Below are positions 16,766-62,355 of a DNA stretch of 62,425 nucleotides, piece by piece. The DNA comes from Candidatus Avelusimicrobium aviculae (lineage in GTDB: Bacteria; Elusimicrobiota; Elusimicrobia; Elusimicrobiales; Elusimicrobiaceae): positions 1 to 62,425 of the forward strand of contig CALUXF010000008.1 of assembly GCA_944324655.1 (NCBI GenBank), given 5' to 3'. Made by a program: the position numbers and the translations under genes. Positions within the stretch are counted from its first letter, which is position 1. Each line of letters begins with the position of its first letter. The notes below the pieces were generated by a model. That model was given only the letters and a program-made list of their open reading frames with translations, was not told the DNA's origin and searched no databases.

Positions 16766-17491
16766 TTAATTTAACGTGGGGTTTATAGTTAAATTATAAT
16801 TTTGGATTTTTTGGTTTTCCAATTCTCTTTTAGGGGCTTGCGCTTCATACTGGGCGCGTTGTTCCCGATCTTTTTTAGAGAAAGACACTCCGAAGCGCCT
16901 TAAAGCGGCGCGGGGCATTCCCTTTCCCTGCCAGGCCAACTCCTCATCTTGGTGGGATACTTGGGCCCGCATTTGCTCAAATTGAAACCAAGTTGCCAAT
17001 TCTTCATTGGAAAGGTTCTGATGGCCTTTGCGTTTTTGTCTGATTTTTTTAAATGTTTTGGCGTGCCGTTTGGCAAAACGGCTTACATCTTTTAATGTCA
17101 ATTCTTTTTTACCTTTTCCCTTATATTCACTATAAAAATTTTGATTTTCCAGCGGTATGGGCTGTATATTGCCAGGGTTTAATTGCTGTAAAACTTGGCG
17201 TTTTGCATGAGAAGCCAATATGTTGGAAGCCGCAGCCCTCTCCGACGCGTTTGCCGACGGCTCGTTTCCAGCGGTTTGTTTGGGTAAAGGCTTAGGCAAA
17301 TGCAAATCTTCCACGGGCAGCAGGTTTTCTGCGGGGCGGGCAGGCGGCACCATTTTCCAATCCGAGTCTTGATATGTTTTGGTATTTAACACAAATCCAC
17401 CGCCTAAATGGATTTGTTTTTGAGATTGGGCGTGTATTATGCCAGGAACTAACATTACGGAAATAGATAATAATAATAATTTTTGATTCAT
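16766..17491 (-). CDS. Secreted protein of unknown function with LGGGFVLNTK motif
   Basis: Not recognised. A 241-residue protein with a signal peptide (cleavage near IIHAQ), then QKQIHLGGGFVLNTK, the same motif as in its neighbour. The remainder is basic and low in hydrophobics, probably extended or helical, with no cysteines after the signal. The shared N-terminus with otherwise unrelated bodies suggests a common sorting or anchoring signal. A strong Shine-Dalgarno (AAGGAGG) precedes the ATG. Confidence 0.72.
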   Translation of the reverse strand: MNQKLLLLSISVMLVPGIIHAQSQKQIHLGGGFVLNTKTYQDSDWKMVPPARPAENLLPVEDLHLPKPLPKQTAGNEPSANASERAAASNILASHAKRQVLQQLNPGNIQPIPLENQNFYSEYKGKGKKELTLKDVSRFAKRHAKTFKKIRQKRKGHQNLSNEELATWFQFEQMRAQVSHQDEELAWQGKGMPRAALRRFGVSFSKKDREQRAQYEAQAPKRELENQKIQNYNLTINPTLN

Positions 17492-17514
17492 ATATCCTCC
17501 TTGTAACTATATAT

Positions 17515-17543
17515 AGTATAGGTTTTGATATATGACGACACAA
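17515..17543 (-). promoter_or_regulatory. Promoter of the 241-residue secreted-protein gene
   Basis: On the minus strand, TTGTGT (17538-17543) is separated by 17 nt from TATACT (17515-17520). The start codon follows 23 nt later with a Shine-Dalgarno between. Confidence 0.6.
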
Positions 17544-17549
17544 GAGACT

Positions 17550-17576
17550 AAAGACCTATGCCAAGCATAGGTCTTT
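17550..17576 (-). repeat. Perfect inverted repeat, terminator and possible operator
   Basis: 12-bp arms AAAGACCTATGC/GCATAGGTCTTT with a 3-nt loop (CAA). It lies directly after the nucleotidyltransferase gene and upstream of the promoter of the next gene. As a terminator it lacks a clean T run. Each arm matches half of the CCAAAGACCC element seen before other secreted-protein genes, so it may also be a binding site. Confidence 0.5.
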
Positions 17577-17585
17577 GGATGCTTT

Positions 17586-20905: not shown

Positions 20906-21604
20906 TTAATACGGCAGCGCATCAATGCCTTCCCAGTCAATACCCTCTCCGCTTTCTAGCATATTTTGCACATTTTTGCGCTTCCATTGTTTGTATTCTT
21001 CATGGCTCATGGCGGAAGGGGGTGTATAATTTTTAAGCTGTCTCAGCTCTGTATATACCCTGTATTCTATGTTTTGTAATTCAAACGCCGGTTCTATATC
21101 CAGTTTCACCACACCGTATTTAACGGGAATGTTAGTTATTCCCTGTTTGACGGCGGCCACGTATTTGGCTACTTCCGCCCGGCCGGCAAATACAATATTT
21201 TCCCCGTTTACCAGCCATTCTTTAGAAGGTGCTGCGGTAGTTTTTTCAAAACGGAAAAAGGTGGTTTGAAACGCTTCCTTGGGAACAAAATGGCGTATTT
21301 GGTAAGCGGCGCGGTATTGGGCCTCTATATTCCAGGGAGATTTATGGAAGGAGGCTTCTTCTTCCAACAGTTGCTTGGCTGCCGGTGACGCCGCGGCCTG
21401 TGTGGTGCCGGCAGCCGCTCTTTGCTCTAGCGTTTGGGCGGCGGCTGTTTCGGCTTCTTTAATTGCCGGCGCAGATTTTTTGAACAGGGAGGCTTTTGCG
21501 TCATTTACTTTTTTAGCCAAACGCTCCAACATGGCTTTTTGCCCATAGGATGCGGGCAAACAGCAAATCATAAATAAAAATATAATGGTTAATTTTTTTA
21601 GCAT
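20906..21604 (-). CDS. Secreted protein of unknown function
   Basis: Not recognised. A 232-residue protein with a signal peptide (cleavage near SYGQ). An Ala/Lys/Glu-rich helical stretch (about 25-85) is followed by a compact domain (about 90-232) with alternating aromatic and charged residues that ends DWEGIDALPY. It has no cysteines after the signal and no catalytic motif. The AGGGTCCAAAG-type palindrome lies about 65 nt upstream of the ATG. Confidence 0.72.
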   Translation of the reverse strand: MLKKLTIIFLFMICCLPASYGQKAMLERLAKKVNDAKASLFKKSAPAIKEAETAAAQTLEQRAAAGTTQAAASPAAKQLLEEEASFHKSPWNIEAQYRAAYQIRHFVPKEAFQTTFFRFEKTTAAPSKEWLVNGENIVFAGRAEVAKYVAAVKQGITNIPVKYGVVKLDIEPAFELQNIEYRVYTELRQLKNYTPPSAMSHEEYKQWKRKNVQNMLESGEGIDWEGIDALPY

Positions 21605-21669
21605 AAAAAGCCCTGTTTGTTAAAATTTTCTGTATCTTACTAAAAAATAACAAACAAAAGAAAAATTTA

Positions 21670-21704
21670 CCAGGGTCTTTGGACCCAAAATAATTTTGGG
21701 TCCT
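21670..21704 (-). promoter_or_regulatory. CCAAAG palindromic element upstream of a secreted-protein gene
   Basis: On the minus strand: GGGTCCAAAGACCC followed by TGG (21670-21686), a perfect palindrome around CAAA. A second, weaker copy AGGACCCAAAAT is at 21693-21704, about 18 nt further upstream. Only a weak -10-like TTATTT lies at the expected distance. Confidence 0.5.
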
Positions 21705-21781: not shown

Positions 21782-22024
21782 TTAAAATTGACAGCCTAAA
21801 TGCAGGGCCGCGTATTTTTCCGCGTTATAGATTTCTATGTCAGACAAGGTATGAAAATCTCTAAACTCGCGGCTGATCCAGGCGAATTCTCTGTCTAACT
21901 TGCGTTTTTTGGTTATTTGCGTAAAAATCACGCTTTCTTTATTGGTGATCATAACTTTCACCTCTGCCTTGGGCTGTTGCTTATTACTAAGATAGTTTTT
22001 TAGACGTAAAATAAACAGGGTCAT
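21782..22024 (-). CDS. Small hypothetical protein (uncertain)
   Basis: An 80-residue basic ORF with no recognisable domain, no signal peptide and no Shine-Dalgarno at its ATG. The end (KYAALHLGCQF) resembles the last strand of an outer-membrane beta-barrel, so it may be a remnant of a larger gene. It is listed because no other gene explains this stretch and a hairpin follows it. It may not be expressed. Confidence 0.3.
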   Translation of the reverse strand: MTLFILRLKNYLSNKQQPKAEVKVMITNKESVIFTQITKKRKLDREFAWISREFRDFHTLSDIEIYNAEKYAALHLGCQF

Positions 22025-22055
22025 TGGGCCCAAAGCGGGGCCTAATTTGGGCCCA
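22025..22055. repeat. Inverted repeat of GGGCCC palindromes
   Basis: TGGGCCCAAA (22025-22034) and TTTGGGCCCA (22046-22055) form a perfect 10-bp inverted repeat with an 11-nt loop, and each arm holds its own GGGCCC palindrome. It lies between the uncertain small ORF and the coaC-like gene. It resembles the CCAAAG element found elsewhere and may be a regulatory site or a transcript hairpin. Confidence 0.45.
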
Positions 22056-29703: not shown

Positions 29704-29768
29704 AGGGCTTTTTTCCCTTTGCATATAGGCCAAAAGGCCCTGGCTTTCTTCGTTTTAAGCCTTATAAA
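29704..29768 (+). promoter_or_regulatory. Tandem CCAAAG-type elements and promoter
   Basis: A proximal palindrome AGGCCAAAAGGCCCTGG (29727-29743) is followed by a TATAAA -10 box (29763-29768) whose start is 33 nt after the CCAAAA. A weaker distal copy, AGGGCTTTTTTCCC, starts at 29704, 23 nt upstream. No -35 box is seen, as expected for an activator-dependent promoter. Transcription would run into the small ORF at 29797 and then the secreted-protein gene at 29936. Confidence 0.55.
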
Positions 29769-29796
29769 ATAAGAATATATCGGAGGAATTCTACCT

Positions 29797-29935: not shown

Positions 29936-30514
29936 ATGAAAAAATTATTTCTACTCTTAGCAGTTTTATCGTGCAGCGCTTTATTGCGGGCAGGGGTGCA
30001 GGATGCCCTGTCCCATGCGGCTCTTACCGCTAAAAGAAACCAAGTGCAGCAGCAATTCCAGCAAGCCTATGATAATGCGCTTGCCTGCCGCCAAGCCGTG
30101 CAAAGCGGCCGTTGGAACGCGGCCATACAAGCCGGGACCAAGGCTCAGCAATATCATCGGCAAGCCATCGCTTTGGCTGAGGAAAACAACATCAAAATAT
30201 ATCATGCTGTTATTGCGCCGGATAATTTGCTTACGGACCCTTTTGTCTTCTTGGCGGACGTGTATGAGAACGTTTTATTTTCACAAGTAATAAGCGGGAA
30301 AATTTCCATGCAAGAGGCTGTGCAGCAAGGTCAGCGTCTAGCTAAAAACGAGGGCCTTTTAGGCGCCATTTTAGGCGAAAACGAAAAAGTCAACGCCGCT
30401 TATATAGACATTTCTGAAGCCTTCCGTTCTTGGAAAGGCTGTCCCCGCGCCATTGAATCCTTGGGCCAACAGGCGAAAGTAAACGCTAAAGACTTTTGCC
30501 AGCCGGAATTTTAA
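29936..30514 (+). CDS. Secreted helical protein of unknown function
   Basis: Not recognised. A 192-residue protein with a signal peptide (cleavage near LLRAG), then an all-helical, Gln/Ala-rich body resembling TPR-like helices in composition. Three cysteines in the mature part (in NALACRQA, WKGCPRA and DFCQPEF) could form one disulphide. No catalytic motif. A terminator follows. Confidence 0.72.
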   Translation: MKKLFLLLAVLSCSALLRAGVQDALSHAALTAKRNQVQQQFQQAYDNALACRQAVQSGRWNAAIQAGTKAQQYHRQAIALAEENNIKIYHAVIAPDNLLTDPFVFLADVYENVLFSQVISGKISMQEAVQQGQRLAKNEGLLGAILGENEKVNAAYIDISEAFRSWKGCPRAIESLGQQAKVNAKDFCQPEF

Positions 30515-37873: not shown

Positions 37874-37938
37874 AGGACTAAAAAATAACAGATTTAGGAC
37901 CAAAGACCCATGCCCGCCCAAAAACAGATTTATATAAT
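37874..37938 (+). promoter_or_regulatory. Tandem CCAAAG-type elements and promoter
   Basis: The proximal element AGGACCAAAGACCCATG (37896-37912) lies 33 nt (CCAAAG start to -10 start) before a perfect TATAAT (37933-37938). A half-conserved AGGACTAAA at 37874 lies 22 nt further upstream. No -35 box is seen. Confidence 0.6.
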
Positions 37939-37962: not shown

Positions 37963-38517
37963 ATGCATAAAATATATTTAATTGTAGGTTTGGTTTTCCT
38001 GTCTTTTTCACTTCAGGCGCAAGGACTGGCAAGAAAAGCGGTCAAAGCAGTTCAGGGCAGTGGGAGCAAAATAGAGCTTTTCAACACGCTGTTAAATAGC
38101 AAAAAGTATTCCAAATTACTAAAAACTTTAAATAGAAAAACGGCTAACGCTTTTTTAAATCAACAAGCCCAAGGGTTGTTTTTGGAAAATAATATTCTAA
38201 AATTAGCGCTTCCTAGCCAAATAAATGAAACTCAGCTTTATCCGTTGGCAGCAGCGGCGGCCAAGTTGCTAAACCCCAAAGACAAATTCGCCCGGGCCTT
38301 GACGGAAAAATGGTTAAAAAAGAATGCCTGCTACGCCCAAAGATATGCCCAAAAAATAAACGGCACCCCCAATGATATGACCTCTTACTATGTGGCTTGG
38401 CTGTACGCGAACTGCCTGCTGCATAAAGCCTCTTCCCCGTCTTACCAGTGCTTGGAAAAAACGCTGGAAACCAAATACGGTTTTTTAAACTATAAAGAGT
38501 TATATCACCTGCTGTAA
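37963..38517 (+). CDS. Secreted protein of unknown function
   Basis: Not recognised. A 184-residue basic protein with a signal peptide (cleavage near LQAQG), followed by GLARKAVKAVQGSGSKIELFNTLL and a helical body. Three cysteines lie in the last third. The N-terminus after the signal resembles that of the next gene (both begin QG plus basic residues). No enzyme motif. Confidence 0.7.
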   Translation: MHKIYLIVGLVFLSFSLQAQGLARKAVKAVQGSGSKIELFNTLLNSKKYSKLLKTLNRKTANAFLNQQAQGLFLENNILKLALPSQINETQLYPLAAAAAKLLNPKDKFARALTEKWLKKNACYAQRYAQKINGTPNDMTSYYVAWLYANCLLHKASSPSYQCLEKTLETKYGFLNYKELYHLL

Positions 38518-38581: not shown

Positions 38582-38646
38582 AGGTCTAAAGCCCTATCCT
38601 AAAAGGGGCCAAAGAACCCATGTATTCTTATAAATCTTCTTATAAA
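38582..38646 (+). promoter_or_regulatory. Tandem CCAAAG-type elements and promoter
   Basis: The proximal element AGGGGCCAAAGAACCCATG (38604-38622) lies 32 nt (CCAAAG start to -10 start) before TATAAA (38641-38646). A distal copy AGGTCTAAAGCCCT begins at 38582, 22 nt upstream. Confidence 0.6.
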
Positions 38647-38679
38647 ATATACATAGACATCATGCTTTAAGGGGGAGTT

Positions 38680-39618
38680 ATGTTCTACCGTAAATTACAA
38701 GCTTGCTTGGTTTGTGTATGCATTAGCCTGCCTTTGGGACTTTGCCACGCGCAAGGAATTATAAAAAGAGGCGGGCAAAAGATTATCCCCTCTTTGCCGG
38801 AATCTTCGGCTAAAGTTTCCATTTTGCAAAAAAAACTTTTAATACGTTTGGAACGGGTTTCCCGCCCCCAGCAAAAAGTTTTGTCTTTAATTTCCAAAGA
38901 ACAATTAAATTTTAAGCCTGTTACGGCAGGAGGGAAACAATATTTTGTTTCTCCGGCGGGTATCAAATTATCTTCCCAGAGTGATGTTTCCGCCTTTATT
39001 TACGCCGTTAAAAACAATTATTACAGCGTGGTGGTTAAGTCTTTTAGCGTGCATGGTTTTTGCCCGGTAAAAGACGTTTGTTTAAAATCTCTTTGGCAGG
39101 CGCAGGAATATGTGCAGGCGGCAAAACAAGGTTATCAGGTAGAAATTAAACAAGGCTGTATAACGGGTATTTCCCCCAAAGAGGGGGTATGGTTAAAAAC
39201 AATGTCCTCCGCCGATATGTACGCACAAGCCAGCAAGGAAGGTTTAAACCCTCAGGTAAAAGATGGAAAAATTGTTTCTTATGTTCCAGATCTTGAAGTA
39301 CAATTTCATTCCGTTATTGCCGCCAGGGATTATTGCCGTGCCCGCCGGTTAGGTTACAAGGTGCGTATCCAAGAAAATAAAATGACCGGCTTTTCCCCCG
39401 CGCCGGATATGTGGTTCTATCATTTATCGGACGCTAAAGCCTATGCTTTGGCTCTTAAAGAAAATCCGCTCCAACAAGCAGAAAACGGCATTTTGACGGT
39501 AAGAAGCTCTAAACCGCTTTACTTCCGTTTTGAGCCCAAACATAACGCATACTTTTTGTTTGACCCGCAGTATAACTCCCCCTCTCGGCCTTTTATTATT
39601 GACTGGCCCCGTTTATAA
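38680..39618 (+). CDS. Secreted protein with five 37-residue tandem repeats
   Basis: Not recognised. A 312-residue protein with a signal peptide (cleavage near CHAQ), a basic helical segment (about 27-75), then five tandem repeats of exactly 37 residues (97-133, 134-170, 171-207, 208-244, 245-281). The pattern is roughly WLKSxxxAxxYxxAxKxGYxVxIKxGxIxGxSPxxDV: a short strand, a helix, then a hairpin. A 31-residue C-terminal cap rich in aromatics follows. Each repeat may be a binding module. Strong Shine-Dalgarno AGGGGGAG. Confidence 0.75.
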   Translation: MFYRKLQACLVCVCISLPLGLCHAQGIIKRGGQKIIPSLPESSAKVSILQKKLLIRLERVSRPQQKVLSLISKEQLNFKPVTAGGKQYFVSPAGIKLSSQSDVSAFIYAVKNNYYSVVVKSFSVHGFCPVKDVCLKSLWQAQEYVQAAKQGYQVEIKQGCITGISPKEGVWLKTMSSADMYAQASKEGLNPQVKDGKIVSYVPDLEVQFHSVIAARDYCRARRLGYKVRIQENKMTGFSPAPDMWFYHLSDAKAYALALKENPLQQAENGILTVRSSKPLYFRFEPKHNAYFLFDPQYNSPSRPFIIDWPRL

Positions 39619-42099: not shown

Positions 42100-42570
42100 A
42101 TGCAAAACACAAAAGGTTTTACCTTAATTGAATTGTTGGTGGTGGTATTGATTATCGGCATTTTGTCTTCTGTGGCTCTTCCGCAGTATACCATTTCGGT
42201 GGAAAAAGCCCGCTTAACGGAAGGTTTTTTAAATGCCAAAGCCATGACGGACTCTATCCAGCGTTACCGCCAGGCTAACCCCACATTGGGCTGCCCCACG
42301 GACAATACGGCTTTAGACGCGGACTTGCAGGGCGGCCGCTGGGATAACCCTAACGGCGGAACGGTATTTTCCACCAAAAATTTTACATTTACCTTAAGAA
42401 ATAACTGCACGGTGGATGTTTGCAGAAGAGATGAAGGCACCGCTACTTGCATTGTCAGTTGGACGCAAATTATCCCGGACCAGGACAGCAGCTCCAACTA
42501 CCGTATTAATATTACAAGCGACGGTACTACCGACGGACAAAAACTGGCAGAGTTTGTAGGAGCTTTATAA
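42100..42570 (+). CDS. Type IV pilin-like protein (pseudopilin)
   Basis: A 156-residue prepilin. The leader is short (MQNTKG) with the peptidase cleavage site G-FTLIELLVVVLIIGIL and Glu at +5. The globular domain holds five cysteines (in LGCP, NNCT, DVCRR and ATCIV). It would be assembled into a pilus or type II secretion pseudopilus by machinery not in this window. It has a Shine-Dalgarno (AAGGAG), a -10-like TATACT upstream and its own terminator, so it is a single-gene unit. Confidence 0.93.
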   Translation: MQNTKGFTLIELLVVVLIIGILSSVALPQYTISVEKARLTEGFLNAKAMTDSIQRYRQANPTLGCPTDNTALDADLQGGRWDNPNGGTVFSTKNFTFTLRNNCTVDVCRRDEGTATCIVSWTQIIPDQDSSSNYRINITSDGTTDGQKLAEFVGAL

Positions 42571-61642: not shown

Positions 61643-61701
61643 CGGTCCTAGAATCATTTAGGCCCAAAGAGCCTTGTAAAACAGAAACTTTTTCTGATAC
61701 T
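61643..61701 (+). promoter_or_regulatory. CCAAAG-type element and promoter
   Basis: The element AGGCCCAAAGAGCCTTG (61660-61676) lies 32 nt (CCAAAG start to -10 start) before GATACT (61696-61701). TTGTAA (61674-61679) could act as a -35 at 16 nt. A degenerate GGTCCTAGAATC lies about 19 nt upstream. Confidence 0.5.
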
Positions 61702-61734: not shown

Positions 61735-62355
61735 ATGAATTATAAATTATGGGCGGGAGTATTGTTCGCGCTGGCTGCCTGCGTATACCCGGCGGCACTG
61801 CGTGCAGAGCAGCAGGATGCCCCAAAACTGTTTTTTTGGCAACGGGTTTTGGAAAAGGAAAACCAAAATGTAAACAGCAGGGTCTCTTCCTCGGTACTGG
61901 GCACGTCGGCTAATGCCAATATACGCCTAATCAGCGCGCAGGCGCAAGCCGCCAAAGTAATGGAAAATTTATTTGCCTCTTTACTGAAAAAACAGCGCAA
62001 GTCAGAAAGTGAAATTCAAAAGTGCAAAGCCAATTATCAAGATTTGCAAAAAAGCGCAAATACCAATAAATTATTTAAAGGCTACGTGCTAACAGCCATA
62101 GTCCCTAGTGATTTTTGTCTGCTTTCCAACGAAGAAAAAGCCTTTTTAAAACGCTTTTTTAACAACATAGAAACCCCGCAGGAGGCCCGCCAGTATAAAG
62201 GGGCGCTGCTGCTTAGCCTAAATTATCAGCATGCGGACATGTGGCTGGTCATTAAACCGAAGGAAAAACTGATTATCTTTAATTATAATGACCCGGCGGA
62301 TTTGAAATCCATCAAAGAATTAAACGGCAAATCAATCGTTCTTTCCGTCAAATAA
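61735..62355 (+). CDS. Secreted protein of unknown function
   Basis: Not recognised. A 206-residue protein with a signal peptide (cleavage near LRAEQ). The mature part starts with a helical region rich in Ser/Asn/Gln (about 30-110) followed by a domain that ends in alternating strands (LLLSLNYQHADMWLVIKPKEKLII). Two cysteines (KCKANY and DFCLL). Strong Shine-Dalgarno GGGAGGAT. Confidence 0.72.
   Translation: MNYKLWAGVLFALAACVYPAALRAEQQDAPKLFFWQRVLEKENQNVNSRVSSSVLGTSANANIRLISAQAQAAKVMENLFASLLKKQRKSESEIQKCKANYQDLQKSANTNKLFKGYVLTAIVPSDFCLLSNEEKAFLKRFFNNIETPQEARQYKGALLLSLNYQHADMWLVIKPKEKLIIFNYNDPADLKSIKELNGKSIVLSVK

What the first reader, a model, noticed from the sequence alone, without database searches (positions are those of the whole stretch)
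37874..37938. Recurrent palindromic CCAAAG element at a fixed distance from the -10 box of secreted-protein genes
AGGnCCAAAGnCCCnTG (an inverted repeat GGnC-CAAA-GnCC) occurs at 37896, 38604, 61660 and 29727 on the plus strand and at 21670-21686 on the minus strand. A related inverted repeat is at 17550-17576. In four cases the CCAAAG starts 32-33 nt before TATAAT, TATAAA, GATACT or TATAAA, so it would be centred near -41, the place of a class II activator. Three of the four promoters lack a -35 box, and three have a second weaker copy 22-23 nt upstream. All lie before genes for small exported proteins of unknown function. This suggests one dimeric activator and a regulon of surface proteins. 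I know of no named regulator with this site.
Basis: partly seen in the sequence, partly recalled or inferred. Interest (0 to 1): 0.75.

Follow-up and report, generated by a model that had tools for sequence, protein, structure and literature searches.

The report
Response-regulator regulon of exported proteins
The repeated DNA motif is a real promoter switch found before dozens of genes for exported proteins in gut Elusimicrobia bacteria, and comparative evidence points to one particular two-component response regulator, encoded in a pilus-type gene cluster, as the protein that binds it.

Summary
The finding is real and larger than the window. The motif is a class-II operator, T[A/G]GGNC[C/T][A/T]A[A/T]G[A/G]CC, centred at about -42.5. 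It is followed by C-TTG (the -35 trinucleotide), 20 nt and TANNNT; a second copy lies about 24 bp upstream. A promoter profile finds 30 sites in the host genome (E<1e-3). Across related genomes, 112 of 118 non-redundant sites with a readable gene precede a signal-peptide gene (86) or a conserved 54-aa gene (26). In 84,980 genomes the exact promoter is almost confined to Elusimicrobiota. The best candidate regulator is "RR-B", a NarL/FixJ-type response regulator in a Tad-like locus beside two histidine kinases. Its recognition helix carries the DosR base-contact residues, and the site resembles the DosR box. Of 150 genomes, all 56 with sites have RR-B; none of the 84 without it has sites. Most telling is genome G137: it alone (of 66 helices read) has Lys->Asn at the DosR-K179 position, and it has no canonical sites but 41 GTACTAAAGTAC sites before the same kind of genes. 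The genus's other NarL-type regulator is unchanged there. Binding and activation are inferred, not shown experimentally.

The parts
37895..37912 (+). Proximal operator TAGGACCAAAGACCCATG (ATG in the place of the -35 TTG)
   Evidence: R1 E 2.2e-8 in the window; training site of R1
37875..37882 (+). Distal half-copy GGACTAAA, 22 bp upstream (usual spacing elsewhere 24-25 bp)
   Evidence: sequence; spacing statistics
37933..37938 (+). -10 TATAAT; inferred start of transcription about 37945
   Evidence: offset 20 after the 16-mer, as in 89 of 114 core matches
37963..38517 (+). Target gene: 184-aa protein with signal peptide, no Pfam match
38605..38622 (+). Degenerate proximal operator GGGGCCAAAGAACCCATG; distal copy GGTCTAAAGCCC 38583-38594
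   Evidence: R1 38583-38655, E 1.2e-4
38643..38648 (+). -10 TAAAAT
   Evidence: offset 20 after the operator
38680..39618 (+). Target gene: 312-aa protein with signal peptide, no Pfam match
61659..61676 (+). Proximal operator TAGGCCCAAAGAGCCTTG; distal right half GGTCCTA 61644-61650
   Evidence: R1 E 3.5e-6
61735..62355 (+). Target gene: 206-aa protein with signal peptide
29726..29743 (+). Operator TAGGCCAAAAGGCCCTGG; -10 TAAAAT 29765-29770
   Evidence: R1 29718-29779, E 1.2e-5
29936..30514 (+). Probable target: 192-aa protein with signal peptide, about 160 nt downstream
21670..21687 (-). Proximal operator TGGGTCCAAAGACCCTGG; -10 TATTTT 21644-21649; partial distal copy upstream
   Evidence: R1 21635-21704, E 3.2e-11; training site of R1
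20906..21604 (-). Target gene: 232-aa protein with signal peptide
22015..22032 (-).
   Evidence: R1 21979-22036, E 1.1e-6
17541..17558 (-).
   Evidence: sequence in register; R1 17511-17578 weak, E 0.17
16766..17491 (-). Probable target gene: 241-aa protein with signal peptide

Best explanation
The element is the operator of a two-component regulon of exported proteins in Elusimicrobiota. A NarL/FixJ-type response regulator (RR-B, G000 contig C4:51166-51843) binds as a dimer to the palindrome RGGNCYW-WWGRCCY centred at about -42.5, and a second dimer binds a weaker copy about 24 bp upstream. Bound there, it would contact RNA polymerase at a sigma70-type promoter with only a rudimentary -35 (TTG) and a -10 TANNNT (class II activation), switching on dozens of genes for Sec-exported proteins, some of them leaderless. 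RR-B would be phosphorylated by the dCache-HAMP histidine kinase and the receiver-kinase protein encoded just upstream of it in a Tad-like locus. Shown by sequence: the promoter architecture, its conservation, its link to exported-protein genes, the co-occurrence with RR-B, and the matching change of RR-B and its sites in G137. Inferred: physical binding, activation rather than repression, the kinase pairing, the signal.
For: (1) Fixed architecture: TANNNT at offset 20 in 89 of 114 core matches, TTG at +13 in 77 of 114, upstream copy. (2) Targets: 86 signal-peptide genes and 26 genes of one 54-aa family out of 118 sites with a readable gene. (3) Phylum survey: 56 of 150 genomes have sites at E<=1e-3, all 56 have an RR-B ortholog; 0 of 84 without RR-B have sites (Fisher 3e-31, not corrected for phylogeny). 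(4) The genus has exactly two full GerE-domain response regulators. RR-A orthologs are confined to family f1, yet f7 genomes without it have sites. (5) The RR-B helix KTIKN aligns with DevR/DosR KTVKN, whose K179, K182 and N183 contact bases (PMC4082495, PMC5861037), and the site has the layout of the DosR consensus TTSGGGACTWWAGTCCCSAA (PMC2275270). (6) Natural swap: G137 alone (1 of 66 helices read) has Lys->Asn at the K179 position in a syntenic RR-B. G137 has 0 canonical sites and 41 GTACTAAAGTACCTTG sites (0 in the reversed control), again before signal-peptide genes; no other of 90 family genomes has such a set. (7) RR-B lies in a two-component, Tad-like locus.
Against: No binding, expression or start-site data. 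Co-occurrence is phylogenetically confounded, and the specificity swap is a single evolutionary event; G137 RR-B is also more diverged overall (64% identity against 76-84% in the other genera of its family). No convincing site was found before the RR-B operon. RR-B's neighbours are HisKA-type kinases, whereas NarL-type regulators usually pair with HisKA_3 kinases (my knowledge). The position at -42.5 fits activation but repression is not excluded. Several RR-B genomes (f8, some f2 and f7) have no significant sites.
Confidence: 0.8

Rival explanations
1. The operator is bound by RR-A, the other NarL-type response regulator of the genus (G000 C2:15311-15955, next to a HisKA_3 kinase).
For: RR-A is present in all genus genomes examined and in family f1, where the sites are most numerous.
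Against: Family f7 genomes have sites without an RR-A ortholog. The RR-A helix (NTVHVH) does not match the DosR residues and is identical in G137 and in G051, which has canonical sites.
Confidence: 0.05
2. The operator is bound by a regulator of another family that is also conserved in these genomes.
For: Only GerE-domain proteins were compared systematically; other DNA-binding families were not surveyed.
Against: The half-site, the DosR-like helix, the co-occurrence with RR-B and the G137 double change all point to RR-B.
Confidence: 0.1
3. RR-B binds but represses: the operator overlaps the -35 element and would block polymerase.
For: The palindrome abuts the TTG; the TTG to TANNNT spacing is that of an ordinary promoter.
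Against: The -35 is weak (only TTG is conserved, often ATG or TGG), the distance to -10 is rigid, and tandem upstream copies are common, all more typical of activation. Repressor sites usually vary more in position (my knowledge).
Confidence: 0.2
4. The whole element is the -35 region of an alternative sigma factor rather than an operator.
For: Fixed spacing to -10 and a conserved CCCTTG.
Against: In G137 the palindrome is rewritten while TTG and -10 are kept. Where the TTG moves by one base (CCATTG) the -10 moves too (L339, L340). Copies occur upstream without a promoter.
Confidence: 0.04
5. Chance similarity or a dispersed repeat family.
For: In the window alone the consensus is not above expectation.
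Against: Genome-wide excess over reversed controls in nearly every genus genome, fixed promoter context, and near-restriction to one phylum in 84,980 genomes. The flanks are not conserved.
Confidence: 0.01

Closest known systems
DosR/DevR regulon of Mycobacterium tuberculosis (DosR box TTSGGGACTWWAGTCCCSAA)
   Same: NarL/FixJ-type response regulator; K179/K182/N183 equivalents conserved; palindrome of the same length and layout (G-rich half-sites, AT centre)
   Different: Neighbouring kinases are dCache/HisKA and receiver/HisKA rather than haem sensors; targets are exported proteins rather than dormancy genes; one position per half-site differs; the gene lies in a Tad-like locus of another phylum
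VraR/LiaR cell-envelope response regulators
   Same: Closest solved full-length sequences (VraR, E 1e-38)
   Different: Third contact residue is Thr instead of Asn (KTVKTH); different phylum and targets; their exact binding sites were not compared here
GerE of Bacillus (half-site TRGGYNNYY, from memory)
   Same: Same HTH family; the half-site TRGGYCY fits that remembered consensus
   Different: GerE has no receiver domain and acts in sporulation; the consensus was not verified in the library

Membership tests
NarL/FixJ-type response regulator (proposed binder RR-B) | Receiver domain PF00072 plus C-terminal GerE/LuxR HTH PF00196 | tested here: met
   E 2.3e-29 and 1e-17
NarL/FixJ-type response regulator (proposed binder RR-B) | Histidine kinase encoded next to it | tested here: met
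   dCache-HAMP-HisKA-HATPase and receiver-HisKA-HATPase proteins directly upstream; phosphotransfer itself not tested
DosR/DevR system | Recognition helix with K179, K182, N183 | tested here: met
   alignment to 3c3w; Lys at the K179 position in 65 of 66 helix reads
DosR/DevR system | GGGACTWWAGTCCC palindrome | tested here: not met
   same layout, but the fourth half-site position is mostly T or C instead of A
DosR/DevR system | GAF haem sensor kinases DosS/DosT | tested here: not met
   neighbouring kinases are dCache/HisKA and receiver/HisKA
Class II activator site | Operator centred near -41.5, abutting the -35 element, fixed distance to -10 | tested here: met
   centre -42.5 from the inferred +1; TANNNT at one offset in 89 of 114; +1 is inferred, 17 start codons lie exactly on it
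Class II activator site | Activation of transcription by the bound protein | not testable with these tools
   needs expression data

The most novel reading that the evidence does not exclude
A regulator of dozens of exported-protein genes changed its DNA specificity in one lineage (G137): Lys->Asn in the recognition helix of RR-B went together with rewriting of some 40 operators from GGNCC..GNCC to GTAC..GTAC, a natural case of a whole regulon following its regulator.
Probability: 0.65. Interest if true: 0.78.

Novelty: new member of a known kind. Interest (0 to 1): 0.66.

Why it matters
Regulation in Elusimicrobiota is almost unstudied; the paper searches found no described promoter or regulon there. 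This gives a testable regulator, operator and target list for a large set of lineage-specific exported proteins in common animal-gut bacteria, predicts start sites to the base, and offers a natural regulator-operator specificity switch that can be tested by gel shift.

Tried and rejected
In-window consensus statistics (not significant alone). RR-A as binder (rejected on distribution and unchanged helix). Two GTAC-like hits in G114 look like isolated chance matches without a -10 in register. About ten hits outside Elusimicrobiota were treated as chance (about 7 expected by my own calculation). A weak match before RR-B in one locus (L256) was not counted as autoregulation. The single R1 hit in G076 (family f5) was not relied on, because the consensus there does not exceed its reversed control (17 against 16). 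Pfam gives no function for most of the targets scanned. A first version of the target script had a spacing error and was discarded (corrected). Structure prediction was not run, as it would not decide binding.

Full report
Observation. The window is contig C8 of a 1.62-Mb draft genome (G000). Genome-wide it is: with at most one mismatch 13 matches against 1 in the reversed-pattern control, and similar excesses in most genomes of the genus (up to 22 against 0; one of 13, G004, shows none), while other families of the order show little.

Architecture. Aligning 28 sites and then 114 non-redundant core matches gives T[A/G]GGNC[C/T][A/T]A[A/T/G]G[A/G]CCC-TTG, 20 nt, TANNNT. TANNNT falls at exactly that distance in 89 of 114; most other offsets have 0 to 7, with smaller peaks of 13 at +22 and 22 at +25 in the AT-rich stretch around the start. 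TTG stands at the -35 position in 77 of 114. A second copy of the palindrome, with its right half best kept, lies 24-25 bp upstream, and a few promoters have a third. If +1 is at the usual distance after -10, the proximal operator is centred at about -42.5. An independent check supports that +1: in the 118 sites with a readable gene, 17 start codons lie exactly on it, suggesting leaderless messages.

Extent and targets. A sequence-only profile (R1, built from 23 of these sites) finds 30 sites at E<1e-3 in the host genome. About 27 of those 30 precede a gene with a signal peptide, against 14 of 52 other window genes by a lax heuristic. Over all loci, 86 of 118 are signal-peptide genes and 26 belong to one 54-aa cytoplasmic family, followed in examined loci by an exported HEAT-repeat protein. 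The targets fall into about 54 sequence clusters. The ten scanned with Pfam include a SpoIID domain, a trypsin-like protease and HEAT repeats; half of them match nothing. A scan of 84,980 genomes for the exact promoter gave 76 loci, nearly all from Elusimicrobiota, chiefly gut Elusimicrobiaceae including Candidatus Avelusimicrobium.

Regulator. The operator resembles the DosR box (TTSGGGACTWWAGTCCCSAA, PMC2275270), which suggested a NarL/FixJ-type regulator. Each genus genome searched holds exactly two such full response regulators. RR-B has the DosR base-contact residues in its recognition helix (KTIKN against KTVKN; contacts PMC4082495, PMC5861037). It sits behind a dCache histidine kinase and a receiver-kinase protein and before TadE-like genes. 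In 150 genomes of the phylum, all 56 with sites have an RR-B ortholog (E<1e-60) and none of 84 without it has sites. RR-A orthologs are confined to family f1, yet f7 genomes have sites with the full architecture before signal-peptide genes, and the consensus there exceeds its reversed control (40 against 12, 18 against 9, 62 against 7). In four class genomes without an RR-B ortholog it does not clearly exceed it (2 against 6, 6 against 5, 2 against 7, 5 against 15).

Natural experiment. In one genome, G137, the sites read TAGTACTAAAGTACCTTG, changed in both arms and in the upstream copies: 41 against 0 in the control, 23 of 26 readable ones before signal-peptide genes. Canonical sites are absent there (0), and the GTAC form is absent from the other 89 family genomes apart from two isolated matches. 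G137 RR-B, in the same gene order, is the only one of 66 helices read to carry Asn in place of the Lys equivalent to DosR K179, while its RR-A helix is unchanged. A single event cannot prove cause, but it is what a regulator-operator pair would show. It also argues against a sigma-factor explanation, since TTG and -10 are kept while the palindrome changes.

Limits. R1 was trained on sites from the same genus it later scanned, so counts there are not independent; the f7 and G137 sites were not in training. Co-occurrence is not corrected for phylogeny. The signal-peptide calls are a hydrophobicity heuristic. Other regulator families were not surveyed. No transcript, binding or phenotype data exist here. 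Activation is inferred from geometry.

Verdict. A real regulon in a little-studied phylum, most likely controlled by RR-B. The regulator is of a known kind; the regulon, its operator and the specificity swap appear undescribed in the papers searched.

Noticed in passing
L062 (G000 C9, 404-aa target) and a similar protein in L080: A target with a signal peptide ends in a response-regulator receiver domain (PF00072, E 3.6e-11); a receiver in an exported protein is unusual.
   Followed up: partly
L063, L117, L126 and many other loci, first gene behind the strongest sites: A conserved 50-55-aa cytoplasmic protein (NLRFLLALGNxKVVVLK...) without Pfam match, followed in examined loci by an exported protein (HEAT repeats in L063).
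   Followed up: partly
L139 and L192 (free-living Elusimicrobia), L141, L183: Exact promoter matches outside the gut clade; two stand before the same conserved 132-aa gene, the others before signal-peptide genes.
   Followed up: no
G108 (family f7), R1 hits: Many matches to the operator part alone (model positions 3-39) without a promoter; the pattern occurs 62 times against 7 in the control.
   Followed up: no
L293 (G051), G051 C1:661802-661876: A site lies before a type IV pilin-like gene. G051 is one contig of 1,643,562 bases, which I remember as the size of the Elusimicrobium minutum chromosome; not verified.
   Followed up: partly
window 42100-42570: Type IV pilin-like gene (MQNTKGFTLIELLVV...) without a detected operator.
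   Followed up: no
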